A stretch of DNA of 64,000 nucleotides from NCBI GenBank assembly GCA_023091665.1, contig JALJCQ010000026.1, forward strand, positions 744,001-808,000, given 5' to 3'. The notes under the pieces were generated by a model. It was not told the origin of the DNA and searched no databases. It worked only from the letters and a program-made list of their open reading frames with translations. The position numbers were made by a program, and so were the translations under genes. Of this stretch, positions 262 to 55,854 are shown in pieces. The stretch comes from Pythium myriotylum. Its lineage: Eukaryota > Oomycota > Peronosporomycetes > Pythiales > Pythiaceae. Each line of letters begins with the position of its first letter. The first letter of the stretch is position 1.

Positions 262-1448
262 ATCTGACACGAGCTCTCGTGGCAGTCCATGGTGTCGAAA
301 CACCGTGTCGACGAAGACGCGAGCGCAGCCTTCGGCTGTGATCGTCTCTGGAACTGCAGCAAGATGCACCATCTTGCTGAAACGATCCACGAACACGAGG
401 ATCCCGTTGTTCTTCTGTTCATGGAGACGGACTCCCAGCACTCTGTCGGTACCGGCAGAGACTGTAGCGGCGCGCGAAGTGAAGGTCCCGACTTCACTCG
501 CTGGCAAACCTCGCAAGCACAGACGTACTTGCGCACGAACTTGAATTGGCGAGGCCAATAAAAGTCGCGACTCAACGTGAGATATGTCTTCTCACGTCCA
601 CGATGTCCGCTCACTGGAGCATCGTGGTACTCGTACATGATCCGCAGGCGCAGATCATGATCTCCTGGCACGACGACACGCGGAGTGTCGTCGGCAACGG
701 CGCTGTAGAACAGCAGGCCGTTCCGCTGCGTGTATTGATGAACCTTCGATCGATACGAAGCCGGCAAGCTCTTCAACGCTTGCGGCGATGGCTCCGCAAG
801 GTAGGCCATCAAGCGCACGACCTTAGGGTCGTGTGCATTCGCAGCACGAATGTCGTCGAGCAAGGTCGACGACGGAACACTGGAGCTGAACGCACTCGCT
901 GCGTTCAGGGAATCTTGGGCGGCGACCGTCGGCTCAAAGTCTGGCCGACGGGGCAGAGCATCCGCGACGACGTTGAGTCGTCCGGGCTTGTACTCGACGG
1001 AGAAGTCATACTCCGCGAAGAAAGACAGCCACCTTGCCATGCGCTGCGAGAGGTGTGGACTGTTCACAGCCGTGCGCAAAGACGCATGGTCTGTGAAGAC
1101 CTTGAACGGTCTATCTCCAAGCAGATAGACGCGGAACTTCGCCAGTGCATACTTCATGGCAAGGAGTTCCTTGTCATGCACTGGATAGTTACGCTCAGCT
1201 GGTTGCAGCTGACGCGACTGGTAACAGACGACGCGCTCAGCGCCGTCGTCGTCGAACTGCATCAGCGCTGCGCCGATGGCAAAGTCGCTTGCGTCACAAA
1301 CCACGTGGAATGGTTTGTCCTGGTCCGCGATCGCCAGAACTGGCGATTCAATCAAGCTTTGCTTGATGCCTTCGAAGGAACGCTGACACTCAGCGTTCCA
1401 AGTCCACTTGGTGTCTTTCTTGAGTAATCGAGAAAGAGGAACAGTCAT
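262..1448 (-). pseudogene. Gypsy RNase H and integrase, frameshifted and truncated
   Basis: This directly follows the RT in the same frame after a TAG at 1449-1451. RNase H is recognisable by the Val-Cys-Asp-Ala-Ser-Asp motif, the His-Asp-Lys-Glu-Leu-Leu motif and a Phe-Thr-Asp-His-Ala motif. The chromodomain-less integrase starts with an HHCC zinc-binding module (His-x6-His, then Cys-Ala-Cys-Glu-Val-Cys). Around 420-430 the frame shifts and the segment holding the first catalytic Asp is missing. The core then continues in another frame through the Phe-Val-Asp-Arg-Phe-Ser motif to Leu-Val-Ser-Asp, where LTR X interrupts it at 262. The third catalytic residue is not in the window. Not functional. 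Confidence 0.9.
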
Positions 1449-3101
1449 CTAGGCGTAGTTGCGCGAGTACTTGTGCAAGTACGCCGCGAGGCCAAGGAAC
1501 TTGCGCAGTCCCTTGACGTCGAGTGGCGTTGGCCACTCCTTGATCGCTCTGATCTTCTCGGGATCAGGGCGCACGCCGTTCTTGCCGACTATACACCCAA
1601 GAACGGGTATCTCGCTGGCCGCGAAGATACACTTCTTCAGGTTCGCGTACAGCTTATGCTCTCGCATAAGTGTGAGAACCTCTCTGATGTGGAGTCTGTG
1701 AACCTCCAGATCAGTCTTCCCGTCCATAGCTCGGCTATGAACGAAGGCGTCGTCGAAGTAGCTTGGTGCGAAGGCTCGCACTGGGCGCAATAGATGCGAG
1801 ACGCATCTATTGAATGTGGCTGGTGCGTTGCTGAGGCCCTGAGGCATCACCAACCACTCCCAGAGCATTCCGCTTGGGGTGCTGACGGCCGTGAACGGAA
1901 TATCCCGTTCACGCATCAAGATCTGATAGAATCCGTCCATCAGATCCATCGACGAGAAGATGGTGCTCTTCGCCATCCCGTCGATGATGACGTCCTTCCT
2001 CGGTATCGGCGTCTGCGCCGGTATCGTCGCCGCGTTCAACTTGTTGAACGCGTGTACAATCCGCCACCCTCCTGTTGCCTTGCGCACACAGAAGGTCGGA
2101 GAGCTGTGAGGGGAGGTAGACTCCCTCACATGGCCAGCAGCGAGACGTTCTGCGAAGAACTTGTCGATCGCTTCGACCTGTTCACGAGGCAGTGGCCACT
2201 GCTTCATGACACAGTACTTCGAACCTGGCTTCAGGTCGATCTCGTGCCGAATGCCTTTGTCCTTCGGCAATTCGCACGGCACGGATTCGGGGAACACATC
2301 CGCGAATTCGACCAAATCCTCGTAGAGAGGATTTCCCTTGAGCGACTCCCAGGATTGAGCCGAGTACCGCTCAATCCGAGTCTTCTCATCGAGGACGCTT
2401 TCGTCCATCGATGAGCTGCTGAGAAGCCGTTCCTTCTCAGCAAACACCACTGCCGACCGGATATCGGTCACACATTCGTCCTCCGCGACGAGAATACAGA
2501 TCTGCGCGATCTTTCCTTGGCGCAGATCTCGCAAGAACCGCTTGGTTTCGAGCGTAGGCAGTGCGGTGATCTCCGAAGTTGACTTCGGAGGCGCAACGAC
2601 CTCGAGAGTGGATGCACCCACTCTCGTGCCGTCATTGACTAAGACGTTGATCGTCTCAGTTTCTTCCTGCGGCTTTATGCGCGCAGACTCCTCGAGCTGC
2701 AGTTGCGCAACTGCAGCGAGATCTCCATCGCTCGACGTTCTAGTCGAGGCGGAGAGTCGACGTTGCCTCCTTGCGGCAGACGTCGAGACCTTCCTCTCAT
2801 AGTGCTGCCCCTGTGGCAAGCACTGTCTTCTTGGCTCGTGCGACTTATTCGCACGAGGATCTTCCTCACTTGACTCGTGCGACTCACTCGCACGAGAAGT
2901 CTTCGGCGCTGTCTGCGACTCTACGCAGACCCCGGCAGCTGGCTCGACGACAAAGGTCGACTCTTTGTCGTAGTCTTGGGCAGTCGTACTAACGACCGAG
3001 TGACTGATGAGGCCATCACACCCATCTTTCACACGTCCACGTGCATCTGGACGCTCCAGAACCGACATCAGGTGGCCACCTGATGACCGAGCGGCGGGCA
3101 T
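1449..3101 (-). pseudogene. Gypsy reverse transcriptase segment of pol
   Basis: A 550-residue open segment lies between two in-frame TAG codons (3234-3236 and 1449-1451). The first 200 residues or so are a low-complexity linker after the protease. The RT fingers and palm follow: Trp-Arg-Ile-Val, Ser-Ser-Met-Asp-Leu-Met-Asp-Gly-Phe (first catalytic Asp), Pro-Gln-Gly-Leu-Ser-Asn-Ala-Pro, and Tyr-Phe-Asp-Asp (near 1750-1761), the catalytic YxDD box. It ends in the thumb/connection motif Arg-Lys-Phe-Leu-Gly-Leu. All catalytic residues are kept. The ATG at 3101 is an internal Met of the original polyprotein, not a real start. Family members use a continuous Gag-Pol. Confidence 0.92.
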
Positions 3102-3929
3102 CGTAACGGATCGATGCCGCCAGCTGATCCATGGCTCGTGTGAACGGAGCCATGGCAGGCCTAGAATGACGTCGAACTTGTCATCTAGGTCGAGTACGAC
3201 AAAGTCGTCGTCGTACTCATTGCCTTCAAGCGTCTAGTGGAGGCCCACTACGCGTTTCATAACCCTCACCGTTGCGCCAGTTGCAAGGCGCACCGTCATC
3301 CTCGTCGGAGGAATGTCTCGCTTGACTACGTCGAGCCCCAAAGACTCGATAGACTGTCGTCGAACGAAGTTGTTCGACGCCCCATAGTCTACGAGGGCGC
3401 GAAGCGAAGACGAAGCTCCTTCGACTTCGAGCTCCAAGGTGATGAGGGCCTCGTCATCACCAGGTGTGGCGAAGCACAGAGACTGTGCTTTGGGAGCAGC
3501 CTTCGTCAAGAGTCCCACAAACTCTCTTGACGTGACTGAATCAGTAGGGCGCTCCGCCCCTACTGACCCTGACCGTTTTTTTTTTTTTTTTTTATCATCA
3601 CGCTGCTGTTTCTTCGCAGCGTGTTGATCCGACCACTGGACCTTCTTGTCCACGTGGCGGCCGCGTCCATTGCCGCGAGGCACTGGGCGCGCAGCATAAG
3701 CGTAATGCCCGGTCTTCTGGCATCGATTGCATTTCTGCAATCGCTTGTCCACGCGAGGGCGCTGCTCGCTCTCGGCGTAGGAAAGATCCATGGCCTCTGG
3801 ATCACTTGAGTCTTGTCGTCTAGACGGACGATAAGCAGCAGAATGGACATAAGCCTGTCGCAGGCTGAAGTCCTCTTGGCGAGCAGTCGAGATCGCGTCC
3901 TCGAGTTTATCAAACTCGAGACGGAACAT
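3102..3929 (-). pseudogene. Gypsy gag C-terminus, zinc knuckle and aspartic protease
   Basis: The frame continues from gag after a TAG at 3930-3932. A CCHC knuckle begins Cys-Asn-Arg-Cys-x4-His, but the last Cys is missing (Ala in its place). A Lys-rich run follows, encoded by a long T homopolymer near 3577-3595 on the plus strand. The protease active-site triplet is Asp-Tyr-Gly instead of the usual Asp-Ser-Gly or Asp-Thr-Gly. A third TAG (3234-3236) falls inside the protease. After it, the same frame still encodes the retropepsin C-terminal motif Val-Ile-Leu-Gly-Leu-Pro-Trp-Leu. The abnormal triplet and missing Cys support an inactive copy. Confidence 0.88.
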
Positions 3930-4628
3930 CTAGGTCTTGATCGGCCCGTCCTCGAGCCCCTTGATAAACGCAGCAACCTGCGTTTGATCATCGATGGGAT
4001 TCTCCACGATGCAACTCACGAGGTATCGTGCGTGCTGGGCGTAAGCGTGAATATCACACTTACCTTGCCTGAGGTCCAGGAACTCAGCGCGAGCCCTGAA
4101 CTCGGCTCGGGGTGGCTCAAACGCTTGTTTGATCTTGACCTTGAACTCTTCATACGATCCGAAGCAATACGGATCGTGCAACTTGAAACCGAGCGCCCAC
4201 ACCTTGGCACGACCTGCCAAGTTGGAGATGGCGTAGGTCACTCGCATCGCATCGTCATCGATGCGACGGGCTTCAATGGAATCGTCGAGTTCGACGAACC
4301 AACGCAACAGGCTGTCACCGTCAGCCTTGTACTTGGAGATCTCGATCTTCAACGGCTCGACACGTCGAGGCCGCTCTGCCGCCACAGCAGCAGACTGCTG
4401 CTGCCTCAATAACGCTGCTTGTTGAGCGCTCTGCTCGCGCAGAGCTGCAAGACTCCCTCTCGCTTCGTTCAGCTCATGCTGGATGAACTGGGCGATACTC
4501 GCGTGCTGTTCATCACGCGAGAGCGAGAGGAGCATGGCGCCGACGGCGGCTTCGCCCACCGTCGCGGCCATGCGTTGAACAGCCTGCCACTCGAGTTCAC
4601 TCAAGTGGAGGAAGACCCTGCGCGCCAA
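3930..4628 (-). pseudogene. Gypsy gag (capsid region)
   Basis: About 230 residues with a probable coiled coil (many Gln, Ala and Leu, roughly residues 55-80) followed by a retrotransposon gag core with Trp-Phe-x-Glu-Leu and a Trp-Ala-Leu-Gly motif. It ends in TAG at 3930-3932, and the same frame resumes at once with ATG. The first in-frame ATG is at 4571. A better-placed ATG at 4653, just after the primer site, is in another frame, so a one-base indel near the N terminus is likely. The segment from 4628 starts with TTG, which I do not accept as the start. Confidence 0.85.
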
Positions 4629-4664
4629 GGGTTTCCGGCGCAGGGGGATTCATAGTCGCTGGGC

Positions 4665-4683
4665 GGACTACGAAGTGCTACCA
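4665..4683 (-). other. Candidate primer binding site of the Gypsy element
   Basis: Two bases inside the 5' LTR the minus strand reads TGGTAGCACTTCGTAGTCC. Starting with TGG, the complement of a tRNA CCA end, is the normal pattern for Ty3/Gypsy. The tRNA was not identified. Confidence 0.55.
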
Positions 4684-4685
4684 GG

Positions 4686-5021
4686 TGTAACGAGGCTGAC
4701 CTCGTTACGTCACGTACACTATGGAGCAGTGTAAGAAGCGCGCAACACAGGGACTTGTGTTGGGTTGGGCAAATGGGAAACTGAATTTATGGATTGGGAA
4801 ACCTAGAAAAACCTACTCTTTGTATATAAAACCTCGCAGATCCGCCCTCGGATTTCTGCCATACACTCAATCACAAGACCCTAGCGTGATTGGTGGGAAA
4901 TCGGGATAATATTGTAGGATATTATCCAATCAGGAGACATCGCAACCAGATGGGTTCACGATGTTCCTATCGGACACCATTGACATGGGTCCGTACCATG
5001 TAACGGGCACACCCCGTTACA
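4686..5021 (-). repeat. 5' LTR of the Gypsy element
   Basis: This is a 336-bp LTR whose sense strand starts TGTAACGGGG and ends CTCGTTACA. The termini are perfect 7-bp inverted repeats (TGTAACG/CGTTACA). Both ends also fold into hairpins: 4687-4708 with 9-bp arms and 4-base loop, and 4999-5021 with 9-bp arms and 5-base loop. A third hairpin is at 4904-4927 (9-bp arms). The boundary at 5021/5022 is supported by the abrupt loss of Helitron Rep coding. Confidence 0.8.
4770..4830 (-). promoter_or_regulatory. Gypsy LTR promoter: TATA box plus oomycete-type initiator
   Basis: The sense strand has TTTATATA (complement of 4823-4830). About 40 bases downstream is TTCAGTTT followed by CCCATTTG (complement of 4770-4785). 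This fits the oomycete initiator pattern YTCANTYY followed by CAWTTT. Placing the start of R here is inference. Confidence 0.5.
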
Positions 5022-44082: not shown

Positions 44083-44430
44083 TGTTGGAAGGTCGCTTGG
44101 TTGGTGGGATGCAAAATGCAAAGTGAATTGATCGGGACTTAGTTCGCTGCTGCTACCTCTAAGCCGTCTGTGTGTGTCCTACCTATCGTAAACATATGCA
44201 AACATAAACTGACTTCGTGGATACTTCAACGAAGTCGATGGGTGGCACTGGATTCAAACCAGAACCAGACGGAGAATCTTCCACATGTCGAATCTTCCAC
44301 ATGTCGAATCTTCCACATGTCGAATCTTCCACGGAGAATCTTCTGCAGGAGAATCTTCTACAGCCGAGCTTCAACTGCCGAGCTTCAACTGGAATGATGA
44401 CGCTGGGTTCGAGGCGCATCATCTTCAACA
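44083..44430 (-). repeat. Family B LTR, short form, 5' LTR of B4
   Basis: 348 bp; right flank TTCTC starts the first array unit. Confidence 0.93.
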
Positions 44431-44458
44431 TTCTCGACTTCGTGACCTTTAATAGGTT

Positions 44459-46030
44459 ATGAGCCCAAGTACCATGACGGACAAGACAAAGACTCTCGTT
44501 GACAAGTTCCGTGGCGACAACTACGCTTCGTGGGCACGCTACATGCGAGGCGTGTTCCTAACCAAGTCGGTGTGGAATGTCGTGAACATCAACGAGACGC
44601 CGACGTTCTCGGACCCGCGGATCAAGGACGAGTACATCAGGACCAACAACATCGCGTTCGGCCTGATGCTCCTCCATATCGACGCGGAGTACCACCACAT
44701 CGTCGACGACTGTGAAGAAGCTCATGTGGCATGGAAGCGACTCCGTTCGTTGTACGAAGGGTCGCAGAAGGCGGGTCGAATCTACTTGAAGCGTCAGCTC
44801 TTTAGTATGGAGATGAAGGAAGGCGCGAATGTGTTGCATCACTGCAACGAGATCCTCAACATCCACGCCAAGCTTGTGGCCATCGGCGCGAAGATGGAGG
44901 ACGAAGATGTGGCAATTTGTCTGCTGCGCAGTTTGCCTAAGAGCTATGAGAACGTGGTTCTGCACATCGAGATGAGCAATGCCGACTTGAGAACTAAAGA
45001 AGTGATCAAGGCTCTCACGAACGAGCACGTGAAGCGTGCCGGCGAGATGAAGACTGCAGCCACCAAGCTCGACGACCAAGCCAAGGCGTTTGTGTCGGAG
45101 CAAGATACCCGTGTATGCTCGCACTGCGGCAAGACTGGTCACTTAGTTGACCGTTGTTGGGCCAAGAACAAGCAAGAAGGTCGCAAATTCGGCGGTGGTC
45201 GCTTTGGCGGAAAACGCGCGAACCACGTACAACGCGACTATGAAGAAGACGATGACGCCATCGCCTTCGCTGTGTCAATGGAGGCCAGTATAGCGCCGGA
45301 CACTTCCATGATTGGGAAGTGGGCGATTGACAGTGGTGCCACGCACCATGTCTGTAACGACCGCTCGATGTTTGCCAGTTTGGCTGAGGGCGACCACGGT
45401 GAACTTGTGGTCGCGGAAGGAACGAAGACCAAGATCCTCGGCGTTGGCACAGTGCACGAGCGCGCTATCATTCACGGCGGACAAGTTCGTGACCTCGAAC
45501 TCCGCGACGTATTATACGTACCAGGAATCAAGAAGAATCTGCTTTCAATCCCGCAGATCAACAAGTCAGGCAAGTTTCGCGTTGTCTTCGAAGGGCCTGC
45601 AATGAGCGTACTCGACAAAAGGTCGCGGAAGGTCGTCGCGACTGCTCAACTTGCGTTCGGGTTGTTTTGGCTCCGCTCATTCCCGCGCGCCACTTCGCCT
45701 TCAGCTTTGACAATCTCGGCGGACCGCGCAATCTCGATCCTGCACGAGCGCATGGGTCATGCATCGACTCCGTTGTTGCGCTTGTTGCTCGACAAGTCAA
45801 TGGTGAAGGACGCGGATCTGCCTACGAGCACCAAAGCTACACCGATGTGCCAAGGGTGCCAGCAAGGCAAAATGGTCCAGAAGCCATTCAAGTCCAACAC
45901 CGAGAAGCGCAAGTTTCAACCGTTCGAACTCATCCATCTCGACCTTTGTGGCCCGATGGAGGTCGACAGCATCGGCGGCAGCAAGTTGTTGGAAGGTCGC
46001 TTGGTTGGTGGGATGCAAAATGCAAAGTGA
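44459..46030 (+). CDS. Array unit 1: Gag-protease chimera (523 aa)
   Basis: Gag core, CCHC knuckle (about residues 219-232), protease Asp-Ser-Gly-Ala (about 290), GAG-pre-integrase zinc module with Cys-x2-Cys (about 462-465), then the first integrase Asp (about 494). After Gly-Gly-Ser-Lys, the last 14 codons are antisense B LTR. Structurally it can make capsid and mature it, but it has no working integrase or RT. The layout resembles non-autonomous TR-GAG elements. No sense promoter is present: the A LTR is reduced to 24 bp and the B LTR points the other way. Translation is therefore unproven. Confidence 0.8.
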   Translation: MSPSTMTDKTKTLVDKFRGDNYASWARYMRGVFLTKSVWNVVNINETPTFSDPRIKDEYIRTNNIAFGLMLLHIDAEYHHIVDDCEEAHVAWKRLRSLYEGSQKAGRIYLKRQLFSMEMKEGANVLHHCNEILNIHAKLVAIGAKMEDEDVAICLLRSLPKSYENVVLHIEMSNADLRTKEVIKALTNEHVKRAGEMKTAATKLDDQAKAFVSEQDTRVCSHCGKTGHLVDRCWAKNKQEGRKFGGGRFGGKRANHVQRDYEEDDDAIAFAVSMEASIAPDTSMIGKWAIDSGATHHVCNDRSMFASLAEGDHGELVVAEGTKTKILGVGTVHERAIIHGGQVRDLELRDVLYVPGIKKNLLSIPQINKSGKFRVVFEGPAMSVLDKRSRKVVATAQLAFGLFWLRSFPRATSPSALTISADRAISILHERMGHASTPLLRLLLDKSMVKDADLPTSTKATPMCQGCQQGKMVQKPFKSNTEKRKFQPFELIHLDLCGPMEVDSIGGSKLLEGRLVGGMQNAK

Positions 46031-46334
46031 ATTGATCGGGACTTAGTTCGCTGCTGCTACCTCTAAGCCGTCTGTGTGTGTCCTACCTATCGTAAACATA
46101 TGCAAACATAAACTGACTTCGTGGATACTTCAACGAAGTCGATGGGTGGCACTGGATTCAAACCAGAACCAGACGGAGAATCTTCCACATGTCGAATCTT
46201 CCACATGTCGAATCTTCCACATGTCGAATCTTCCACGGAGAATCTTCTGCAGGAGAATCTTCTACAGCCGAGCTTCAACTGCCGAGCTTCAACTGGAATG
46301 ATGACGCTGGGTTCGAGGCGCATCATCTTCAACA
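45987..46334 (-). repeat. B LTR of array unit 1
   Basis: 348 bp, flanks CAAGT and TTCTC. Confidence 0.93.
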
Positions 46335-46362
46335 TTCTCGACTTCGTGACCTTTAATAGGTT

Positions 46363-47934
46363 ATGAGCCCAAGTACCATGACGGACAAGACAAAGACTCT
46401 CGTTGACAAGTTCCGTGGCGACAACTACGCTTCGTGGGCACGCTACATGCGAGGCGTGTTCCTAACCAAGTCGGTGTGGAATGTCGTGAACATCAACGAG
46501 ACGCCGACGTTCTCGGACCCGCGGATCAAGGACGAGTACATCAGGACCAACAACATCGCGTTCGGCCTGATGCTCCTCCATATCGACGCGGAGTACCACC
46601 ACATCGTCGACGACTGTGAAGAAGCTCATGTGGCATGGAAGCGACTCCGTTCGTTGTACGAAGGGTCGCAGAAGGCGGGTCGAATCTACTTGAAGCGTCA
46701 GCTCTTTAGTATGGAGATGAAGGAAGGCGCGAATGTGTTGCATCACTGCAACGAGATCCTCAACATCCACGCCAAGCTTGTGGCCATCGGCGCGAAGATG
46801 GAGGACGAAGATGTGGCAATTTGTCTGCTGCGCAGTTTGCCTAAGAGCTATGAGAACGTGGTTCTGCACATCGAGATGAGCAATGCCGACTTGAGAACTA
46901 AAGAAGTGATCAAGGCTCTCACGAACGAGCACGTGAAGCGTGCCGGCGAGATGAAGACTGCAGCCACCAAGCTCGACGACCAAGCCAAGGCGTTTGTGTC
47001 GGAGCAAGATACCCGTGTATGCTCGCACTGCGGCAAGACTGGTCACTTAGTTGACCGTTGTTGGGCCAAGAACAAGCAAGAAGGTCGCAAATTCGGCGGT
47101 GGTCGCTTTGGCGGAAAACGCGCGAACCACGTACAACGCGACTATGAAGAAGACGATGACGCCATCGCCTTCGCTGTGTCAATGGAGGCCAGTATAGCGC
47201 CGGACACTTCCATGATTGGGAAGTGGGCGATTGACAGTGGTGCCACGCACCATGTCTGTAACGACCGCTCGATGTTTGCCAGTTTGGCTGAGGGCGACCA
47301 CGGTGAACTTGTGGTCGCGGAAGGAACGAAGACCAAGATCCTCGGCGTTGGCACAGTGCACGAGCGCGCTATCATTCACGGCGGACAAGTTCGTGACCTC
47401 GAACTCCGCGACGTATTATACGTACCAGGAATCAAGAAGAATCTGCTTTCAATCCCGCAGATCAACAAGTCAGGCAAGTTTCGCGTTGTCTTCGAAGGGC
47501 CTGCAATGAGCGTACTCGACAAAAGGTCGCGGAAGGTCGTCGCGACTGCTCAACTTGCGTTCGGGTTGTTTTGGCTCCGCTCATTCCCGCGCGCCACTTC
47601 GCCTTCAGCTTTGACAATCTCGGCGGACCGCGCAATCTCGATCCTGCACGAGCGCATGGGTCATGCATCGACTCCGTTGTTGCGCTTGTTGCTCGACAAG
47701 TCAATGGTGAAGGACGCGGATCTGCCTACGAGCACCAAAGCTACACCGATGTGCCAAGGGTGCCAGCAAGGCAAAATGGTCCAGAAGCCATTCAAGTCCA
47801 ACACCGAGAAGCGCAAGTTTCAACCGTTCGAACTCATCCATCTCGACCTTTGTGGCCCGATGGAGGTCGACAGCATCGGCGGCAGCAAGTTGTTGGAAGG
47901 TCGCTTGGTTGGTGGGATGCAAAATGCAAAGTGA
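46363..47934 (+). CDS. Array unit 2: Gag-protease chimera
   Basis: Translation identical to unit 1. A part 46335-47890. Confidence 0.8.
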   Translation: MSPSTMTDKTKTLVDKFRGDNYASWARYMRGVFLTKSVWNVVNINETPTFSDPRIKDEYIRTNNIAFGLMLLHIDAEYHHIVDDCEEAHVAWKRLRSLYEGSQKAGRIYLKRQLFSMEMKEGANVLHHCNEILNIHAKLVAIGAKMEDEDVAICLLRSLPKSYENVVLHIEMSNADLRTKEVIKALTNEHVKRAGEMKTAATKLDDQAKAFVSEQDTRVCSHCGKTGHLVDRCWAKNKQEGRKFGGGRFGGKRANHVQRDYEEDDDAIAFAVSMEASIAPDTSMIGKWAIDSGATHHVCNDRSMFASLAEGDHGELVVAEGTKTKILGVGTVHERAIIHGGQVRDLELRDVLYVPGIKKNLLSIPQINKSGKFRVVFEGPAMSVLDKRSRKVVATAQLAFGLFWLRSFPRATSPSALTISADRAISILHERMGHASTPLLRLLLDKSMVKDADLPTSTKATPMCQGCQQGKMVQKPFKSNTEKRKFQPFELIHLDLCGPMEVDSIGGSKLLEGRLVGGMQNAK

Positions 47935-48238
47935 ATTGATCGGGACTTAGTTCGCTGCTGCTACCTCTAAGCCGTCTGTGTGTGTCCTACCTATCGTAAA
48001 CATATGCAAACATAAACTGACTTCGTGGATACTTCAACGAAGTCGATGGGTGGCACTGGATTCAAACCAGAACCAGACGGAGAATCTTCCACATGTCGAA
48101 TCTTCCACATGTCGAATCTTCCACATGTCGAATCTTCCACGGAGAATCTTCTGCAGGAGAATCTTCTACAGCCGAGCTTCAACTGCCGAGCTTCAACTGG
48201 AATGATGACGCTGGGTTCGAGGCGCATCATCTTCAACA
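47891..48238 (-). repeat. B LTR of array unit 2
   Basis: 348 bp, three 16-bp units. Confidence 0.93.
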
Positions 48239-48266
48239 TTCTCGACTTCGTGACCTTTAATAGGTT

Positions 48267-49838
48267 ATGAGCCCAAGTACCATGACGGACAAGACAAAGA
48301 CTCTCGTTGACAAGTTCCGTGGCGACAACTACGCTTCGTGGGCACGCTACATGCGAGGCGTGTTCCTAACCAAGTCGGTGTGGAATGTCGTGAACATCAA
48401 CGAGACGCCGACGTTCTCGGACCCGCGGATCAAGGACGAGTACATCAGGACCAACAACATCGCGTTCGGCCTGATGCTCCTCCATATCGACGCGGAGTAC
48501 CACCACATCGTCGACGACTGTGAAGAAGCTCATGTGGCATGGAAGCGACTCCGTTCGTTGTACGAAGGGTCGCAGAAGGCGGGTCGAATCTACTTGAAGC
48601 GTCAGCTCTTTAGTATGGAGATGAAGGAAGGCGCGAATGTGTTGCATCACTGCAACGAGATCCTCAACATCCACGCCAAGCTTGTGGCCATCGGCGCGAA
48701 GATGGAGGACGAAGATGTGGCAATTTGTCTGCTGCGCAGTTTGCCTAAGAGCTATGAGAACGTGGTTCTGCACATCGAGATGAGCAATGCCGACTTGAGA
48801 ACTAAAGAAGTGATCAAGGCTCTCACGAACGAGCACGTGAAGCGTGCCGGCGAGATGAAGACTGCAGCCACCAAGCTCGACGACCAAGCCAAGGCGTTTG
48901 TGTCGGAGCAAGATACCCGTGTATGCTCGCACTGCGGCAAGACTGGTCACTTAGTTGACCGTTGTTGGGCCAAGAACAAGCAAGAAGGTCGCAAATTCGG
49001 CGGTGGTCGCTTTGGCGGAAAACGCGCGAACCACGTACAACGCGACTATGAAGAAGACGATGACGCCATCGCCTTCGCTGTGTCAATGGAGGCCAGTATA
49101 GCGCCGGACACTTCCATGATTGGGAAGTGGGCGATTGACAGTGGTGCCACGCACCATGTCTGTAACGACCGCTCGATGTTTGCCAGTTTGGCTGAGGGCG
49201 ACCACGGTGAACTTGTGGTCGCGGAAGGAACGAAGACCAAGATCCTCGGCGTTGGCACAGTGCACGAGCGCGCTATCATTCACGGCGGACAAGTTCGTGA
49301 CCTCGAACTCCGCGACGTATTATACGTACCAGGAATCAAGAAGAATCTGCTTTCAATCCCGCAGATCAACAAGTCAGGCAAGTTTCGCGTTGTCTTCGAA
49401 GGGCCTGCAATGAGCGTACTCGACAAAAGGTCGCGGAAGGTCGTCGCGACTGCTCAACTTGCGTTCGGGTTGTTTTGGCTCCGCTCATTCCCGCGCGCCA
49501 CTTCGCCTTCAGCTTTGACAATCTCGGCGGACCGCGCAATCTCGATCCTGCACGAGCGCATGGGTCATGCATCGACTCCGTTGTTGCGCTTGTTGCTCGA
49601 CAAGTCAATGGTGAAGGACGCGGATCTGCCTACGAGCACCAAAGCTACACCGATGTGCCAAGGGTGCCAGCAAGGCAAAATGGTCCAGAAGCCATTCAAG
49701 TCCAACACCGAGAAGCGCAAGTTTCAACCGTTCGAACTCATCCATCTCGACCTTTGTGGCCCGATGGAGGTCGACAGCATCGGCGGCAGCAAGTTGTTGG
49801 AAGGTCGCTTGGTTGGTGGGATGCAAAATGCAAAGTGA
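48267..49838 (+). CDS. Array unit 3: Gag-protease chimera
   Basis: Translation identical to unit 1. A part 48239-49794. Confidence 0.8.
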   Translation: MSPSTMTDKTKTLVDKFRGDNYASWARYMRGVFLTKSVWNVVNINETPTFSDPRIKDEYIRTNNIAFGLMLLHIDAEYHHIVDDCEEAHVAWKRLRSLYEGSQKAGRIYLKRQLFSMEMKEGANVLHHCNEILNIHAKLVAIGAKMEDEDVAICLLRSLPKSYENVVLHIEMSNADLRTKEVIKALTNEHVKRAGEMKTAATKLDDQAKAFVSEQDTRVCSHCGKTGHLVDRCWAKNKQEGRKFGGGRFGGKRANHVQRDYEEDDDAIAFAVSMEASIAPDTSMIGKWAIDSGATHHVCNDRSMFASLAEGDHGELVVAEGTKTKILGVGTVHERAIIHGGQVRDLELRDVLYVPGIKKNLLSIPQINKSGKFRVVFEGPAMSVLDKRSRKVVATAQLAFGLFWLRSFPRATSPSALTISADRAISILHERMGHASTPLLRLLLDKSMVKDADLPTSTKATPMCQGCQQGKMVQKPFKSNTEKRKFQPFELIHLDLCGPMEVDSIGGSKLLEGRLVGGMQNAK

Positions 49839-50142
49839 ATTGATCGGGACTTAGTTCGCTGCTGCTACCTCTAAGCCGTCTGTGTGTGTCCTACCTATCG
49901 TAAACATATGCAAACATAAACTGACTTCGTGGATACTTCAACGAAGTCGATGGGTGGCACTGGATTCAAACCAGAACCAGACGGAGAATCTTCCACATGT
50001 CGAATCTTCCACATGTCGAATCTTCCACATGTCGAATCTTCCACGGAGAATCTTCTGCAGGAGAATCTTCTACAGCCGAGCTTCAACTGCCGAGCTTCAA
50101 CTGGAATGATGACGCTGGGTTCGAGGCGCATCATCTTCAACA
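49795..50142 (-). repeat. B LTR of array unit 3
   Basis: 348 bp, three 16-bp units. Confidence 0.93.
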
Positions 50143-50170
50143 TTCTCGACTTCGTGACCTTTAATAGGTT

Positions 50171-51742
50171 ATGAGCCCAAGTACCATGACGGACAAGACA
50201 AAGACTCTCGTTGACAAGTTCCGTGGCGACAACTACGCTTCGTGGGCACGCTACATGCGAGGCGTGTTCCTAACCAAGTCGGTGTGGAATGTCGTGAACA
50301 TCAACGAGACGCCGACGTTCTCGGACCCGCGGATCAAGGACGAGTACATCAGGACCAACAACATCGCGTTCGGCCTGATGCTCCTCCATATCGACGCGGA
50401 GTACCACCACATCGTCGACGACTGTGAAGAAGCTCATGTGGCATGGAAGCGACTCCGTTCGTTGTACGAAGGGTCGCAGAAGGCGGGTCGAATCTACTTG
50501 AAGCGTCAGCTCTTTAGTATGGAGATGAAGGAAGGCGCGAATGTGTTGCATCACTGCAACGAGATCCTCAACATCCACGCCAAGCTTGTGGCCATCGGCG
50601 CGAAGATGGAGGACGAAGATGTGGCAATTTGTCTGCTGCGCAGTTTGCCTAAGAGCTATGAGAACGTGGTTCTGCACATCGAGATGAGCAATGCCGACTT
50701 GAGAACTAAAGAAGTGATCAAGGCTCTCACGAACGAGCACGTGAAGCGTGCCGGCGAGATGAAGACTGCAGCCACCAAGCTCGACGACCAAGCCAAGGCG
50801 TTTGTGTCGGAGCAAGATACCCGTGTATGCTCGCACTGCGGCAAGACTGGTCACTTAGTTGACCGTTGTTGGGCCAAGAACAAGCAAGAAGGTCGCAAAT
50901 TCGGCGGTGGTCGCTTTGGCGGAAAACGCGCGAACCACGTACAACGCGACTATGAAGAAGACGATGACGCCATCGCCTTCGCTGTGTCAATGGAGGCCAG
51001 TATAGCGCCGGACACTTCCATGATTGGGAAGTGGGCGATTGACAGTGGTGCCACGCACCATGTCTGTAACGACCGCTCGATGTTTGCCAGTTTGGCTGAG
51101 GGCGACCACGGTGAACTTGTGGTCGCGGAAGGAACGAAGACCAAGATCCTCGGCGTTGGCACAGTGCACGAGCGCGCTATCATTCACGGCGGACAAGTTC
51201 GTGACCTCGAACTCCGCGACGTATTATACGTACCAGGAATCAAGAAGAATCTGCTTTCAATCCCGCAGATCAACAAGTCAGGCAAGTTTCGCGTTGTCTT
51301 CGAAGGGCCTGCAATGAGCGTACTCGACAAAAGGTCGCGGAAGGTCGTCGCGACTGCTCAACTTGCGTTCGGGTTGTTTTGGCTCCGCTCATTCCCGCGC
51401 GCCACTTCGCCTTCAGCTTTGACAATCTCGGCGGACCGCGCAATCTCGATCCTGCACGAGCGCATGGGTCATGCATCGACTCCGTTGTTGCGCTTGTTGC
51501 TCGACAAGTCAATGGTGAAGGACGCGGATCTGCCTACGAGCACCAAAGCTACACCGATGTGCCAAGGGTGCCAGCAAGGCAAAATGGTCCAGAAGCCATT
51601 CAAGTCCAACACCGAGAAGCGCAAGTTTCAACCGTTCGAACTCATCCATCTCGACCTTTGTGGCCCGATGGAGGTCGACAGCATCGGCGGCAGCAAGTTG
51701 TTGGAAGGTCGCTTGGTTGGTGGGATGCAAAATGCAAAGTGA
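50171..51742 (+). CDS. Array unit 4: Gag-protease chimera
   Basis: Translation identical to unit 1. A part 50143-51698. Confidence 0.8.
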   Translation: MSPSTMTDKTKTLVDKFRGDNYASWARYMRGVFLTKSVWNVVNINETPTFSDPRIKDEYIRTNNIAFGLMLLHIDAEYHHIVDDCEEAHVAWKRLRSLYEGSQKAGRIYLKRQLFSMEMKEGANVLHHCNEILNIHAKLVAIGAKMEDEDVAICLLRSLPKSYENVVLHIEMSNADLRTKEVIKALTNEHVKRAGEMKTAATKLDDQAKAFVSEQDTRVCSHCGKTGHLVDRCWAKNKQEGRKFGGGRFGGKRANHVQRDYEEDDDAIAFAVSMEASIAPDTSMIGKWAIDSGATHHVCNDRSMFASLAEGDHGELVVAEGTKTKILGVGTVHERAIIHGGQVRDLELRDVLYVPGIKKNLLSIPQINKSGKFRVVFEGPAMSVLDKRSRKVVATAQLAFGLFWLRSFPRATSPSALTISADRAISILHERMGHASTPLLRLLLDKSMVKDADLPTSTKATPMCQGCQQGKMVQKPFKSNTEKRKFQPFELIHLDLCGPMEVDSIGGSKLLEGRLVGGMQNAK

Positions 51743-52046
51743 ATTGATCGGGACTTAGTTCGCTGCTGCTACCTCTAAGCCGTCTGTGTGTGTCCTACCT
51801 ATCGTAAACATATGCAAACATAAACTGACTTCGTGGATACTTCAACGAAGTCGATGGGTGGCACTGGATTCAAACCAGAACCAGACGGAGAATCTTCCAC
51901 ATGTCGAATCTTCCACATGTCGAATCTTCCACATGTCGAATCTTCCACGGAGAATCTTCTGCAGGAGAATCTTCTACAGCCGAGCTTCAACTGCCGAGCT
52001 TCAACTGGAATGATGACGCTGGGTTCGAGGCGCATCATCTTCAACA
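51699..52046 (-). repeat. B LTR of array unit 4
   Basis: 348 bp, three 16-bp units. Confidence 0.93.
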
Positions 52047-52074
52047 TTCTCGACTTCGTGACCTTTAATAGGTT

Positions 52075-53646
52075 ATGAGCCCAAGTACCATGACGGACAA
52101 GACAAAGACTCTCGTTGACAAGTTCCGTGGCGACAACTACGCTTCGTGGGCACGCTACATGCGAGGCGTGTTCCTAACCAAGTCGGTGTGGAATGTCGTG
52201 AACATCAACGAGACGCCGACGTTCTCGGACCCGCGGATCAAGGACGAGTACATCAGGACCAACAACATCGCGTTCGGCCTGATGCTCCTCCATATCGACG
52301 CGGAGTACCACCACATCGTCGACGACTGTGAAGAAGCTCATGTGGCATGGAAGCGACTCCGTTCGTTGTACGAAGGGTCGCAGAAGGCGGGTCGAATCTA
52401 CTTGAAGCGTCAGCTCTTTAGTATGGAGATGAAGGAAGGCGCGAATGTGTTGCATCACTGCAACGAGATCCTCAACATCCACGCCAAGCTTGTGGCCATC
52501 GGCGCGAAGATGGAGGACGAAGATGTGGCAATTTGTCTGCTGCGCAGTTTGCCTAAGAGCTATGAGAACGTGGTTCTGCACATCGAGATGAGCAATGCCG
52601 ACTTGAGAACTAAAGAAGTGATCAAGGCTCTCACGAACGAGCACGTGAAGCGTGCCGGCGAGATGAAGACTGCAGCCACCAAGCTCGACGACCAAGCCAA
52701 GGCGTTTGTGTCGGAGCAAGATACCCGTGTATGCTCGCACTGCGGCAAGACTGGTCACTTAGTTGACCGTTGTTGGGCCAAGAACAAGCAAGAAGGTCGC
52801 AAATTCGGCGGTGGTCGCTTTGGCGGAAAACGCGCGAACCACGTACAACGCGACTATGAAGAAGACGATGACGCCATCGCCTTCGCTGTGTCAATGGAGG
52901 CCAGTATAGCGCCGGACACTTCCATGATTGGGAAGTGGGCGATTGACAGTGGTGCCACGCACCATGTCTGTAACGACCGCTCGATGTTTGCCAGTTTGGC
53001 TGAGGGCGACCACGGTGAACTTGTGGTCGCGGAAGGAACGAAGACCAAGATCCTCGGCGTTGGCACAGTGCACGAGCGCGCTATCATTCACGGCGGACAA
53101 GTTCGTGACCTCGAACTCCGCGACGTATTATACGTACCAGGAATCAAGAAGAATCTGCTTTCAATCCCGCAGATCAACAAGTCAGGCAAGTTTCGCGTTG
53201 TCTTCGAAGGGCCTGCAATGAGCGTACTCGACAAAAGGTCGCGGAAGGTCGTCGCGACTGCTCAACTTGCGTTCGGGTTGTTTTGGCTCCGCTCATTCCC
53301 GCGCGCCACTTCGCCTTCAGCTTTGACAATCTCGGCGGACCGCGCAATCTCGATCCTGCACGAGCGCATGGGTCATGCATCGACTCCGTTGTTGCGCTTG
53401 TTGCTCGACAAGTCAATGGTGAAGGACGCGGATCTGCCTACGAGCACCAAAGCTACACCGATGTGCCAAGGGTGCCAGCAAGGCAAAATGGTCCAGAAGC
53501 CATTCAAGTCCAACACCGAGAAGCGCAAGTTTCAACCGTTCGAACTCATCCATCTCGACCTTTGTGGCCCGATGGAGGTCGACAGCATCGGCGGCAGCAA
53601 GTTGTTGGAAGGTCGCTTGGTTGGTGGGATGCAAAATGCAAAGTGA
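52075..53646 (+). CDS. Array unit 5: Gag-protease chimera
   Basis: Translation identical to unit 1. A part 52047-53602. Confidence 0.8.
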   Translation: MSPSTMTDKTKTLVDKFRGDNYASWARYMRGVFLTKSVWNVVNINETPTFSDPRIKDEYIRTNNIAFGLMLLHIDAEYHHIVDDCEEAHVAWKRLRSLYEGSQKAGRIYLKRQLFSMEMKEGANVLHHCNEILNIHAKLVAIGAKMEDEDVAICLLRSLPKSYENVVLHIEMSNADLRTKEVIKALTNEHVKRAGEMKTAATKLDDQAKAFVSEQDTRVCSHCGKTGHLVDRCWAKNKQEGRKFGGGRFGGKRANHVQRDYEEDDDAIAFAVSMEASIAPDTSMIGKWAIDSGATHHVCNDRSMFASLAEGDHGELVVAEGTKTKILGVGTVHERAIIHGGQVRDLELRDVLYVPGIKKNLLSIPQINKSGKFRVVFEGPAMSVLDKRSRKVVATAQLAFGLFWLRSFPRATSPSALTISADRAISILHERMGHASTPLLRLLLDKSMVKDADLPTSTKATPMCQGCQQGKMVQKPFKSNTEKRKFQPFELIHLDLCGPMEVDSIGGSKLLEGRLVGGMQNAK

Positions 53647-53950
53647 ATTGATCGGGACTTAGTTCGCTGCTGCTACCTCTAAGCCGTCTGTGTGTGTCCT
53701 ACCTATCGTAAACATATGCAAACATAAACTGACTTCGTGGATACTTCAACGAAGTCGATGGGTGGCACTGGATTCAAACCAGAACCAGACGGAGAATCTT
53801 CCACATGTCGAATCTTCCACATGTCGAATCTTCCACATGTCGAATCTTCCACGGAGAATCTTCTGCAGGAGAATCTTCTACAGCCGAGCTTCAACTGCCG
53901 AGCTTCAACTGGAATGATGACGCTGGGTTCGAGGCGCATCATCTTCAACA
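53603..53950 (-). repeat. B LTR of array unit 5
   Basis: 348 bp, three 16-bp units. Confidence 0.93.
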
Positions 53951-53978
53951 TTCTCGACTTCGTGACCTTTAATAGGTT

Positions 53979-55550
53979 ATGAGCCCAAGTACCATGACGG
54001 ACAAGACAAAGACTCTCGTTGACAAGTTCCGTGGCGACAACTACGCTTCGTGGGCACGCTACATGCGAGGCGTGTTCCTAACCAAGTCGGTGTGGAATGT
54101 CGTGAACATCAACGAGACGCCGACGTTCTCGGACCCGCGGATCAAGGACGAGTACATCAGGACCAACAACATCGCGTTCGGCCTGATGCTCCTCCATATC
54201 GACGCGGAGTACCACCACATCGTCGACGACTGTGAAGAAGCTCATGTGGCATGGAAGCGACTCCGTTCGTTGTACGAAGGGTCGCAGAAGGCGGGTCGAA
54301 TCTACTTGAAGCGTCAGCTCTTTAGTATGGAGATGAAGGAAGGCGCGAATGTGTTGCATCACTGCAACGAGATCCTCAACATCCACGCCAAGCTTGTGGC
54401 CATCGGCGCGAAGATGGAGGACGAAGATGTGGCAATTTGTCTGCTGCGCAGTTTGCCTAAGAGCTATGAGAACGTGGTTCTGCACATCGAGATGAGCAAT
54501 GCCGACTTGAGAACTAAAGAAGTGATCAAGGCTCTCACGAACGAGCACGTGAAGCGTGCCGGCGAGATGAAGACTGCAGCCACCAAGCTCGACGACCAAG
54601 CCAAGGCGTTTGTGTCGGAGCAAGATACCCGTGTATGCTCGCACTGCGGCAAGACTGGTCACTTAGTTGACCGTTGTTGGGCCAAGAACAAGCAAGAAGG
54701 TCGCAAATTCGGCGGTGGTCGCTTTGGCGGAAAACGCGCGAACCACGTACAACGCGACTATGAAGAAGACGATGACGCCATCGCCTTCGCTGTGTCAATG
54801 GAGGCCAGTATAGCGCCGGACACTTCCATGATTGGGAAGTGGGCGATTGACAGTGGTGCCACGCACCATGTCTGTAACGACCGCTCGATGTTTGCCAGTT
54901 TGGCTGAGGGCGACCACGGTGAACTTGTGGTCGCGGAAGGAACGAAGACCAAGATCCTCGGCGTTGGCACAGTGCACGAGCGCGCTATCATTCACGGCGG
55001 ACAAGTTCGTGACCTCGAACTCCGCGACGTATTATACGTACCAGGAATCAAGAAGAATCTGCTTTCAATCCCGCAGATCAACAAGTCAGGCAAGTTTCGC
55101 GTTGTCTTCGAAGGGCCTGCAATGAGCGTACTCGACAAAAGGTCGCGGAAGGTCGTCGCGACTGCTCAACTTGCGTTCGGGTTGTTTTGGCTCCGCTCAT
55201 TCCCGCGCGCCACTTCGCCTTCAGCTTTGACAATCTCGGCGGACCGCGCAATCTCGATCCTGCACGAGCGCATGGGTCATGCATCGACTCCGTTGTTGCG
55301 CTTGTTGCTCGACAAGTCAATGGTGAAGGACGCGGATCTGCCTACGAGCACCAAAGCTACACCGATGTGCCAAGGGTGCCAGCAAGGCAAAATGGTCCAG
55401 AAGCCATTCAAGTCCAACACCGAGAAGCGCAAGTTTCAACCGTTCGAACTCATCCATCTCGACCTTTGTGGCCCGATGGAGGTCGACAGCATCGGCGGCA
55501 GCAAGTTGTTGGAAGGTCGCTTGGTTGGTGGGATGCAAAATGCAAAGTGA
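53979..55550 (+). CDS. Array unit 6: Gag-protease chimera
   Basis: Translation identical to unit 1. A part 53951-55506. Confidence 0.8.
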   Translation: MSPSTMTDKTKTLVDKFRGDNYASWARYMRGVFLTKSVWNVVNINETPTFSDPRIKDEYIRTNNIAFGLMLLHIDAEYHHIVDDCEEAHVAWKRLRSLYEGSQKAGRIYLKRQLFSMEMKEGANVLHHCNEILNIHAKLVAIGAKMEDEDVAICLLRSLPKSYENVVLHIEMSNADLRTKEVIKALTNEHVKRAGEMKTAATKLDDQAKAFVSEQDTRVCSHCGKTGHLVDRCWAKNKQEGRKFGGGRFGGKRANHVQRDYEEDDDAIAFAVSMEASIAPDTSMIGKWAIDSGATHHVCNDRSMFASLAEGDHGELVVAEGTKTKILGVGTVHERAIIHGGQVRDLELRDVLYVPGIKKNLLSIPQINKSGKFRVVFEGPAMSVLDKRSRKVVATAQLAFGLFWLRSFPRATSPSALTISADRAISILHERMGHASTPLLRLLLDKSMVKDADLPTSTKATPMCQGCQQGKMVQKPFKSNTEKRKFQPFELIHLDLCGPMEVDSIGGSKLLEGRLVGGMQNAK

Positions 55551-55854
55551 ATTGATCGGGACTTAGTTCGCTGCTGCTACCTCTAAGCCGTCTGTGTGTG
55601 TCCTACCTATCGTAAACATATGCAAACATAAACTGACTTCGTGGATACTTCAACGAAGTCGATGGGTGGCACTGGATTCAAACCAGAACCAGACGGAGAA
55701 TCTTCCACATGTCGAATCTTCCACATGTCGAATCTTCCACATGTCGAATCTTCCACGGAGAATCTTCTGCAGGAGAATCTTCTACAGCCGAGCTTCAACT
55801 GCCGAGCTTCAACTGGAATGATGACGCTGGGTTCGAGGCGCATCATCTTCAACA
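55507..55854 (-). repeat. B LTR of array unit 6
   Basis: 348 bp, three 16-bp units. Confidence 0.93.

What the first reader, a model, noticed from the sequence alone, without database searches (positions are those of the whole stretch)
262..5021. The Gypsy element is saturated with perfect short inverted repeats, including in conserved coding
By hand I count at least 43 perfect stems of 8-11 bp with loops of 14 bases or fewer in 4.76 kb. About one is expected by chance (about 15 loop sizes times 4^-8 per base). Examples (stem/loop): 671-693 (9/5), 1377-1399 (10/3), 1788-1812 (11/3), 2031-2052 (10/2), 2417-2442 (10/6), 2498-2529 (10/12), 2696-2717 (11/0), 3066-3085 (10/0), 3900-3920 (9/3), 4385-4403 (9/1), 4687-4708 (9/4), 4904-4927 (9/6), 4999-5021 (9/5). 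They run through gag, RT, RNase H and the LTR. The copia and Helitron stretches I scanned show nothing like it. At 2031-2052 the palindrome lies on Ala-Phe-Asn-Lys-Leu-Asn-Ala, so synonymous choices appear to create it. Possible causes: selection for RNA hairpins, template switching during reverse transcription that writes palindromes, or an unknown mutational process. I know of no description of this.
Basis: partly seen in the sequence, partly recalled or inferred. Interest (0 to 1): 0.8.

Follow-up and report, generated by a model that had tools for sequence, protein, structure and literature searches.

The report
Hairpin-saturated Gypsy retrotransposon family
A jumping gene in an oomycete genome carries a perfect DNA hairpin about every 100 letters, even inside its protein-coding parts, and differences between its copies suggest that a copying slip which jumps between DNA strands at hairpins helps to write them.

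Summary
Window 262-5021 holds 48 perfect stems (at least 8 bp, loop at most 14), against a mean of 1.5 in Markov sequences; its coding part holds 44, against 1.9 in codon-preserving shuffles (max 6 of 300). All 13 cited examples check out. The element is a minus-strand Ty3/Gypsy copy, family A, at least 40 copies. Eight of eight loci carry 9.0-10.5 stems/kb; sister families B and C 3-4.5 and 1-1.5; 36 other RT loci 0-1.1.

Selection on sense RNA is poorly supported: G.T and A.C near-stems are about equally common, the sense strand folds no better than the antisense, and most stems differ between families.

Template switching is directly seen between 22 copies: three in-place loop inversions (12, 5, 3 nt; 0.003 expected), one with arm repair, a 2-nt flip, and a 3-nt templated insertion lengthening a stem from 10 to 13 bp. 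Most likely the element's replication drives imperfect palindromes to perfection under protein constraint; that this happens in reverse transcription, and built most stems, is inferred. Hairpin 3541-3566 is a conserved candidate frameshift stimulator.

The parts
262..5021 (-). Family A Ty3/Gypsy element, copy cut at about 262 inside the integrase; carries 48 perfect stems >=8 bp with loop <=14
4686..5021 (-). LTR of family A; these 336 bp match the 3' LTR of copy L054 at 98%; stems 4687-4708, 4904-4927, 4999-5021
   Evidence: stems
3594..4655 (-). gag region, approximate bounds
   Evidence: reading frames
3541..3566 (-). Hairpin 9/8 holding the gag UAG stop, downstream of an A-rich slippery run: candidate -1 frameshift stimulator, kept with compensatory changes in families A, B and C
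1000..3540 (-). Protease, RT and RNase H coding (pol), approximate bounds
262..1000 (-). End of RNase H and N-terminal part of the integrase, cut; the frame changes near 480-500 in this copy; approximate bounds
886..908 (.). Hairpin 9/5; its 5-nt loop is inverted in copy L067 (GCGAG to CTCGC, stem intact)
1377..1399 (.). Hairpin 10/3; its loop is inverted in copies L002 and L067 (GTG to CAC, stem intact)
1451..1486 (.). Quasi-palindrome; in copy L060 the arm mismatch is corrected and the 12-nt loop inverted, giving a perfect 12-bp stem (and a stop codon in the reading frame)
2031..2052 (.). Hairpin 10/2; L063 has the loop flipped (AA to TT), L057 a 3-nt insertion copied from the other arm (stem 13), L060 a paired C-G to T-A change
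2498..2529 (.). Hairpin 10/12; one base pair is C-G in some copies and T-A in others, with T.G intermediates in three copies
3586..3629 (.). Hairpin 8/9; extended to 14 bp in copy L065
1..261 (-). LTR of a family C Gypsy element abutting the cut end; three stems (76-98, 112-143, 174-198)

Best explanation
Family A is a Ty3/Gypsy LTR retrotransposon whose sequence is repeatedly rewritten by template switching at short imperfect inverted repeats. During DNA synthesis the polymerase jumps to the nascent or complementary strand within a fold-back of about 10-40 nt, copies one arm (and sometimes the loop) from the wrong template, and jumps back. Arms become perfect complements, stems lengthen and loops flip. 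Point mutation breaks the stems again on either strand, and selection on the encoded proteins filters what survives. Over many replication cycles the element drifts to about 10 perfect stems per kb. SHOWN: the excess, its restriction to one Gypsy clade among the loci examined, near strand symmetry, loop inversions with intact stems, one arm repair coupled to a loop inversion, and one templated insertion. INFERRED: that this process built most of the stems, and that the switching enzyme is the element's own reverse transcriptase working on single-stranded cDNA rather than the host replication machinery. One hairpin (3541-3566) is in addition conserved, probably for gag-pol frameshifting.
For: 48 stems against 1.5; 44 against 1.85 with codons kept. 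Loops of 3-9 nt are commonest and no stem motif is shared (commonest 5-mer in 7 of 69 stems of L054), as for fold-back rather than a dimer-binding site. One-mismatch stems of >=7 pairs, G.T to A.C: 11:13 (copy L054), 12:13 (L057, same family, not independent), 11:9 (B), about 2 expected of each; 6:4 for mismatches fixed in >=80% of copies. Fold z per 150 nt in A: sense -3.72, antisense -3.56. In-place inversions with >=3 changes among 22 A copies: 3 distinct, reverse control 0; 0.0033 expected from random substitutions. A 2-nt loop flip in L063. Templated 3-nt insertion lengthening a stem from 10 to 13 bp in L057. The same signature (arm homogenisation, spacer inversion, even AA/TT flips) is attributed to template switching in yeast genes (PMC8604942, sections 3 and 6 read). 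Copia (6 loci) and the other RT loci (30) of this genome lack a comparable density, pointing to the element's own replication.
Against: Stem gains by private mutations are not in excess overall: 5 observed against 4.45 simulated (max 10); only stems of >=12 bp are (4 against 0.85, max 4 of 20). The clear switch events are few: three inversions, one 2-nt flip and one insertion in 22 copies beside about 700 private substitutions, so that they suffice to build 48 stems is not shown. The L060 event puts a stop codon in RT (read), so it was not passed on. G.T exceeds A.C in some cuts: 7:2 in B at >=8 pairs, 27:18 in C (10.9 and 7.0 expected). Variants shared by >=3 copies are rarer in arms (8 of 924 columns against 51 of 2515, 0.43 times), which selection would also give. 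Base pairs of A stems changed on both sides stay complementary in B in 41 of 99 cases against 24% in a shifted control. No inversion was found in 10 B or 4 C copies, but these give far fewer comparisons.
Confidence: 0.62

Rival explanations
1. Selection for genome-wide RNA structure of the sense transcript (protection from RNA silencing, packaging, translation control), built by synonymous changes.
For: Very strong folding: z -13.1 as RNA for 901 nt. Arms carry no significant excess of unusual residues. Variants shared by >=3 copies avoid arms. Some between-family covariation. One hairpin is clearly conserved. G.T exceeds A.C in B at >=8 pairs (7:2) and in C (27:18).
Against: G.T and A.C near-stems are about equal in A and, at >=7 pairs, in B. 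The antisense strand folds as well as the sense in A, and slightly better in B and C. Only 2 of 43 A stems share a base pair with a B stem and 1 of 33 with a C stem. Loop inversions change amino acids (read).
Confidence: 0.15
2. Template switching by the host DNA replication or repair machinery at already integrated copies, not by the element's reverse transcription.
For: The same signature occurs in yeast chromosomal genes (PMC8604942). Most observed events are private to one copy, and one of them (L060) introduces a stop codon.
Against: Copia and other RT loci of the same genome show no comparable density. One inversion (1377-1399) is shared by L002 and L067, which also share other variants, so it probably passed through an active lineage. 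Copies diverging independently after insertion would not share most of their stems.
Confidence: 0.15
3. Selection for hairpins or cruciforms at the DNA level (in single-stranded cDNA, or for chromatin, integration or evasion of silencing), acting on both strands.
For: Nearly strand-symmetric structure; strong single-strand DNA folding (z -12.7); the antisense strand slightly more structured in B and C.
Against: No shared motif or fixed loop size. Private mutations hit arms nearly as often as other sites (0.93 times). Stems turn over between families.
Confidence: 0.07
4. Chance, base composition or an assembly artefact.
For: None found.
Against: Markov and codon controls; the same stems in most of the copies compared, at different places in the genome.
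Confidence: 0.01

Closest known systems
Template switching between inverted-repeat arms in Saccharomyces cerevisiae genes (PMC8604942; abstract, sections 3 and 6 read)
   Same: Arm homogenisation; inversion of 2-5 nt spacers with arms of 10 bp or more; AA/TT flips; one case of arm conversion plus spacer inversion; amino-acid changes result.
   Different: There: events in 39 genes of a whole proteome. Here: one mobile element family carries about 10 perfect stems per kb.
Coding palindromes in mitochondrial genes of Nematomorpha (PMC6649704; abstract and discussion read)
   Same: Many perfect inverted repeats inside conserved coding sequence, dynamic gain and loss, template switching proposed as a possible source.
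   Different: There: repeats up to 284 bp in organelle DNA with no excess of imperfect repeats. Here: 8-14 bp stems in a nuclear retrotransposon with a clear excess of one-mismatch stems, and switch events caught between copies.
Template switching creating and maintaining RNA hairpins (PMC8794818; abstract and discussion read)
   Same: One-step creation of perfect stems, instantaneous compensatory changes, rare loop inversions.
   Different: There: RNA genes under structural selection. Here: protein-coding sequence with no sense-strand preference in A.
Structured RNA genomes of LTR retroelements such as Ty3 (PMC11381356; abstract and one results section read); genome-scale ordered RNA structure of viruses (recalled)
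   Same: Secondary structure spread along a retroelement genome.
   Different: Ty3, Ty1 and HIV-1 are described as mosaics of stable and dynamic RNA regions; here the stems are short, perfect, local and about equally strong on both strands.

Membership tests
Ty3/Gypsy LTR retrotransposon | Pol order protease, RT, RNase H, integrase with Gypsy-type relatives | tested here: met
   Frames; relatives among the 120 listed carry PF00078, PF17917, PF17921, PF00665, and those with a species name are oomycetes
Ty3/Gypsy LTR retrotransposon | Long terminal repeats | tested here: met
   473-bp direct repeat at 100% in copy L054; the 5' ends of the window and L057 copies match it over 336-337 bp at 98%. 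No 3' LTR was found in the L057 piece fetched, and the window copy is cut
Ty3/Gypsy LTR retrotransposon | tRNA primer binding site and polypurine tract | not tested
   Not examined
Template-switch (quasi-palindrome) mutation | Perfection of an imperfect arm using the other arm as template | tested here: met
   L060 at 1451-1486 and L057 at 2031-2052; but stem gains overall do not exceed simulation
Template-switch (quasi-palindrome) mutation | In-place inversion of the loop with arms intact | tested here: met
   3 distinct cases with >=3 changes against 0.0033 expected; reverse control 0
Template-switch (quasi-palindrome) mutation | Made by the element's own reverse transcriptase | not testable with these tools
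   Needs a single-cycle assay
Selected RNA-genome structure | Sense strand favoured; G.U tolerated more than A.C | tested here: not met
   Not met for family A. In B and C mixed: G.T above A.C in some cuts (7:2 in B at >=8 pairs; 27:18 in C), but the antisense strand folds slightly better
Selected RNA-genome structure | Stems conserved by compensatory change between relatives | tested here: inconclusive
   2 of 43 (A-B) and 1 of 33 (A-C) stems share a pair; both-changed pairs complementary in 41 of 99 against 24% control
-1 programmed ribosomal frameshift site | Slippery heptamer in the gag frame, about 8-nt spacer, downstream hairpin, pol in the -1 frame | tested here: met
   A AAA AAC in A and B, G GGA AAC in C (frames read); hairpin covaries among A, B and C; -1 frame open for 39-1600 codons downstream in 19 A copies. 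Heptamer rules recalled; frameshifting itself not measured

The most novel reading that the evidence does not exclude
The reverse transcription of this Gypsy clade is itself palindrome-writing: strand switching on single-stranded cDNA acts as a mutational drive, strongest in family A and weaker in B and C, which converts an entire replicating genome, coding regions included, into an array of perfect hairpins limited only by protein constraint.
Probability: 0.4. Interest if true: 0.85.

Novelty: new variant of a known kind. Interest (0 to 1): 0.72.

Why it matters
Template switching at quasi-palindromes is usually reported as isolated events. Here it seems to have reshaped an entire mobile element, so the outcome of long repeated action, including the balance of writing, decay and protein constraint, can be studied in tens of natural copies. 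It gives a natural test of how perfect hairpins arise without selection for RNA structure, warns that strong predicted RNA folding or covariation need not mean RNA function, and points to a retroelement replication machinery that may be unusually prone to strand switching.

Tried and rejected
Tried, of little use: relatives at DNA level in viral contigs and genome contigs gave none, so whether the same clade is hairpin-rich in other species is open; protein relatives were found but carry no DNA. A test whether stems sit on unusual amino acids was negative: arm residues differing from the majority of 60 relatives (of 120 listed) 0.392, outside 0.335; a shifted mask reaches the difference in 0.156 of shifts. 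Counting stem gains by private mutations gave no overall excess, so I do not use the gains as main evidence. Base-pair orientation (G-C above C-G, but A-T at or above T-A) did not fit the published switch model and was left.

Considered and rejected: chance or composition; dispersed palindromic elements (the stems share no sequence); protein-binding palindromes (loop length varies from 0 to 14); sense-RNA selection as main cause.
Full report
WHAT IS THERE. The element occupies 262-5021 on the minus strand: LTR at 4686-5021, then gag, protease, RT, RNase H and part of the integrase. It is cut at about 262 by the LTR of another Gypsy family, C. The window lies at G000:C26:744001-808000 of a 58.7-Mb genome. 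One 1.2-kb probe gave 42 matches, 41 of them at 96% identity or more and one a 38-base piece; two more lie in one copy, so at least 40 copies, the tool having scored 40 of 159 candidates. A protein search scored 135 of 520 candidates; these fall in three tiers, family A (94-100% in RT), family B (68-75%) and family C (59-69%), with nothing between 75 and 94%. I call the host an oomycete because the species-named proteins among the 120 relatives listed are from Globisporangium, Peronospora and Phytophthora.

THE EXCESS. A direct count gives 48 perfect stems of 8-11 bp with loops up to 14, and all 13 cited examples are exact. Markov controls give a mean of 1.53, max 5 of 30. Shuffling synonymous codons in 4652-423 gives a mean of 1.85, max 6 of 300, against 44 observed. 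A longer copy (L054) has 70 stems in 6.7 kb against 1.76 (max 5 of 100); B has 20 against 1.92 (max 5) and C 14 against 1.66 (max 7). Of ten other loci tested the same way nine are within their null; L010 exceeds it (4 against 0.61), three of its four stems being the C-type LTR hairpins. Densities per kb: A 9.0-10.5 in 8 of 8 loci; B 3.0-4.5 in 10 loci, C 1.0-1.5 in 4, a more distant Gypsy-type locus (L050, 43% identical) 0; thirty other RT loci 0-1.1; six Copia loci 0.27-1.07. Many of the thirty I call LINE-like from the shape of their RT match only; that label was not tested. Folding agrees: 901 nt of A has z -12.7 as DNA and -13.1 as RNA, and 901 nt of C has -7.7 as DNA, 20 shuffles each. 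Over 150-nt windows the mean z is -3.7 for A, -1.3 to -2.6 for B and C, -0.8 for L050, and -0.5 to 0.3 for two LINE-like, two Copia, L013 and a window control.

RNA OR DNA LEVEL. If the sense RNA were selected, G.U pairs would be tolerated and A.C mismatches not. Among one-mismatch stems with at least 7 pairs, G.T to A.C is 11:13 in L054, 12:13 in L057 (same family, not independent), 11:9 in B, against about 2 expected for each class, and 3:2 in C (about 1.5 expected). At 8 or more pairs it is 8:8, 9:8, 7:2 and 3:1; at 9 or more 2:5, 4:6, 4:2 and 1:1. B and C thus lean to G.T in the stricter cuts, with small numbers. With stems of 9 or more and wobbles allowed the figures are 41:45, 39:44, 30:25 and, in C, 27:18 (10.9 and 7.0 expected). 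Mismatches fixed in at least 80% of copies are 6:4. Sense minus antisense z is -0.16 +- 0.24 in A, +0.54 +- 0.19 in B and +0.38 +- 0.18 in C, that is, the antisense strand folds slightly better in B and C. In A there is no sense preference.

TEMPLATE SWITCHING CAUGHT BETWEEN COPIES. In 22 copies of A: (1) at 1451-1486 most copies have an imperfect palindrome; L060 has the arm mismatch corrected and the 12-nt loop inverted, giving a perfect 12-bp stem; read in frame this makes a stop codon in RT, so this copy did not pass it on by its own protein; (2) at 886-908 L067 has the 5-nt loop inverted, all five letters changed, stem intact; (3) at 1377-1399 L002 and L067 have the 3-nt loop inverted; (4) at 2031-2052 L063 has AA turned to TT; (5) at the same hairpin L057 has a 3-nt insertion copied from the other arm (stem 10 to 13 bp). 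Read in frame, (2) and (3) change two residues each. A scan for in-place inversions with at least three changes finds exactly the three of (1)-(3), plus two sub-segments of (2); reversed-sequence control 0; the complement control gives only the 3-nt case, where complement and reverse complement are the same string. None in 10 B, 4 C and 19 LINE-like copies; B and C offer far fewer comparisons (81,503 and 10,711 aligned pair-columns against 738,221 in A), and LINE-like copies have almost no hairpins to flip. Random substitution gives 0.0033 per 22 copies. The loop scan at lower stringency also lists a part of event (1), a weak 4-nt case with a 5-bp stem, which I do not count, and as a control hit a 3-nt loop equal to its plain reverse. 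This is the signature that Abraham and Hazkani-Covo attribute to template switching in yeast (PMC8604942).

RESULTS THAT LIMIT THIS. Private changes create stems of 9 bp or more with a gain of at least 3 bp about as often as simulation predicts (5 against 4.45, max 10), though stems of 12 bp or more are commoner (4 against 0.85, max 4 of 20). Private changes hit arms nearly as often as elsewhere (0.93 times), as do variants in two copies (0.91), but variants shared by at least three copies are rarer in arms (8 of 924 columns against 51 of 2515, 0.43 times). Of those eight, four leave the pair broken in the carriers, two make a pair the majority lacks, and two are the two sides of one pair that changed together. 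Arms were defined as pairs seen in at least 4 of 22 copies, which may bias this. Repair by switching or selection in the active lineage could both give it. Stems are mostly not shared between families (2 of 43 A-B, 1 of 33 A-C, 2 of 15 B-C), yet where both partners of an A pair differ in B, 41 of 99 remain complementary against 24% in a shifted control, and 29 of 73 against 20% for C; for B stems in C it is 8 of 29 against 21%. Part of this is one truly conserved hairpin; other stems kept best lie in conserved protein motifs that are naturally near-palindromic. Such near-palindromes may be the seeds that switching perfects; this is inference.

A CONSERVED HAIRPIN. At 3541-3566 a 9-bp stem holds the gag UAG stop. 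Upstream lies A AAA AAC in families A and B and G GGA AAC in C, in the gag frame as read, with pol in the -1 frame; the stem keeps pairing through changes in all three families. By recalled rules this is a -1 frameshift site. The site was located in 19 of 22 A copies: 13 share one identical 16-nt upstream string with seven A's, the others vary, and the window copy's run is expanded to 18 A's.

MECHANISM. I consider it most likely that strand switching in the element's own cDNA synthesis writes the stems: the excess follows a clade of one element type and is absent, at anything like this level, from the Copia and other RT loci examined in the same genome. That step is inferred. Loop inversion needs a jump to the complementary strand; a 3-nt templated insertion can arise by fold-back of the nascent strand. 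Decay on both strands, and loop sizes favouring fold-back (3-9 nt commonest), fit. Columns under arms are about as conserved among relatives as others (0.629 against 0.665 outside, not significant), so proteins seem to filter the products.

LITERATURE. Searches (open-licence full text; several listings capped at 8-20 of up to 693 papers; two returned none) list no paper that, by title and the start of its abstract, describes a hairpin-saturated retrotransposon. Nearest in appearance are the Nematomorpha mitochondrial palindromes (PMC6649704). PMC8794818 and PMC3820800 (abstract) support the mechanism in other settings.

VERDICT. A real, strong and unusual pattern; a known mutation type is shown to act at these hairpins, apparently carried to saturation in one element family. 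That it built most of the stems, and the enzyme responsible, remain to be proved.

Noticed in passing
3541-3593: Candidate -1 frameshift site between gag and pol with a covarying hairpin in three Gypsy families; in the window copy the A run is expanded to 18.
   Followed up: partly
1-261: LTR of a different Gypsy family (C) abuts the element at about 262 and is itself hairpin-rich (three stems of 8-11 bp).
   Followed up: partly
44211-55660: The same hairpin occurs seven times at six exact 1904-bp steps, indicating a tandem array in this part of the window.
   Followed up: no
window copy, codons at 3932, 3236 and 1451: Three in-frame TAG codons in the main frame of this copy; several other copies keep longer open frames.
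   Followed up: no
L054 against window and L057: LTR length differs: 473-bp direct repeat in L054, while the window and L057 copies match it over about 336 bp only, from the same starting point.
   Followed up: no
G000, many contigs: Copia RT matches crowd into one stretch of each of several contigs (150 of 780 candidates scored), reminiscent of the Copia-like centromeric elements of oomycetes (recalled; PMC7082073 seen in a search listing only).
   Followed up: no
L054 (A) and B, one-mismatch stems of >=7 pairs: On the sense strand pyrimidine-pyrimidine mismatches (26) exceed purine-purine ones (7), with about 8 of each expected (sums); weaker in L057 (9:5), absent in C (3:5) and in the L006 core (6:5). 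Unexplained, perhaps codon constraint.
   Followed up: no
families B and C: The antisense strand folds slightly better than the sense (z difference 0.54 and 0.38, about 2-3 standard errors).
   Followed up: no
L061, window 2243-2283: A 12-bp stem with loop 17 present only in this divergent copy among the 22, with changes in both arms.
   Followed up: partly
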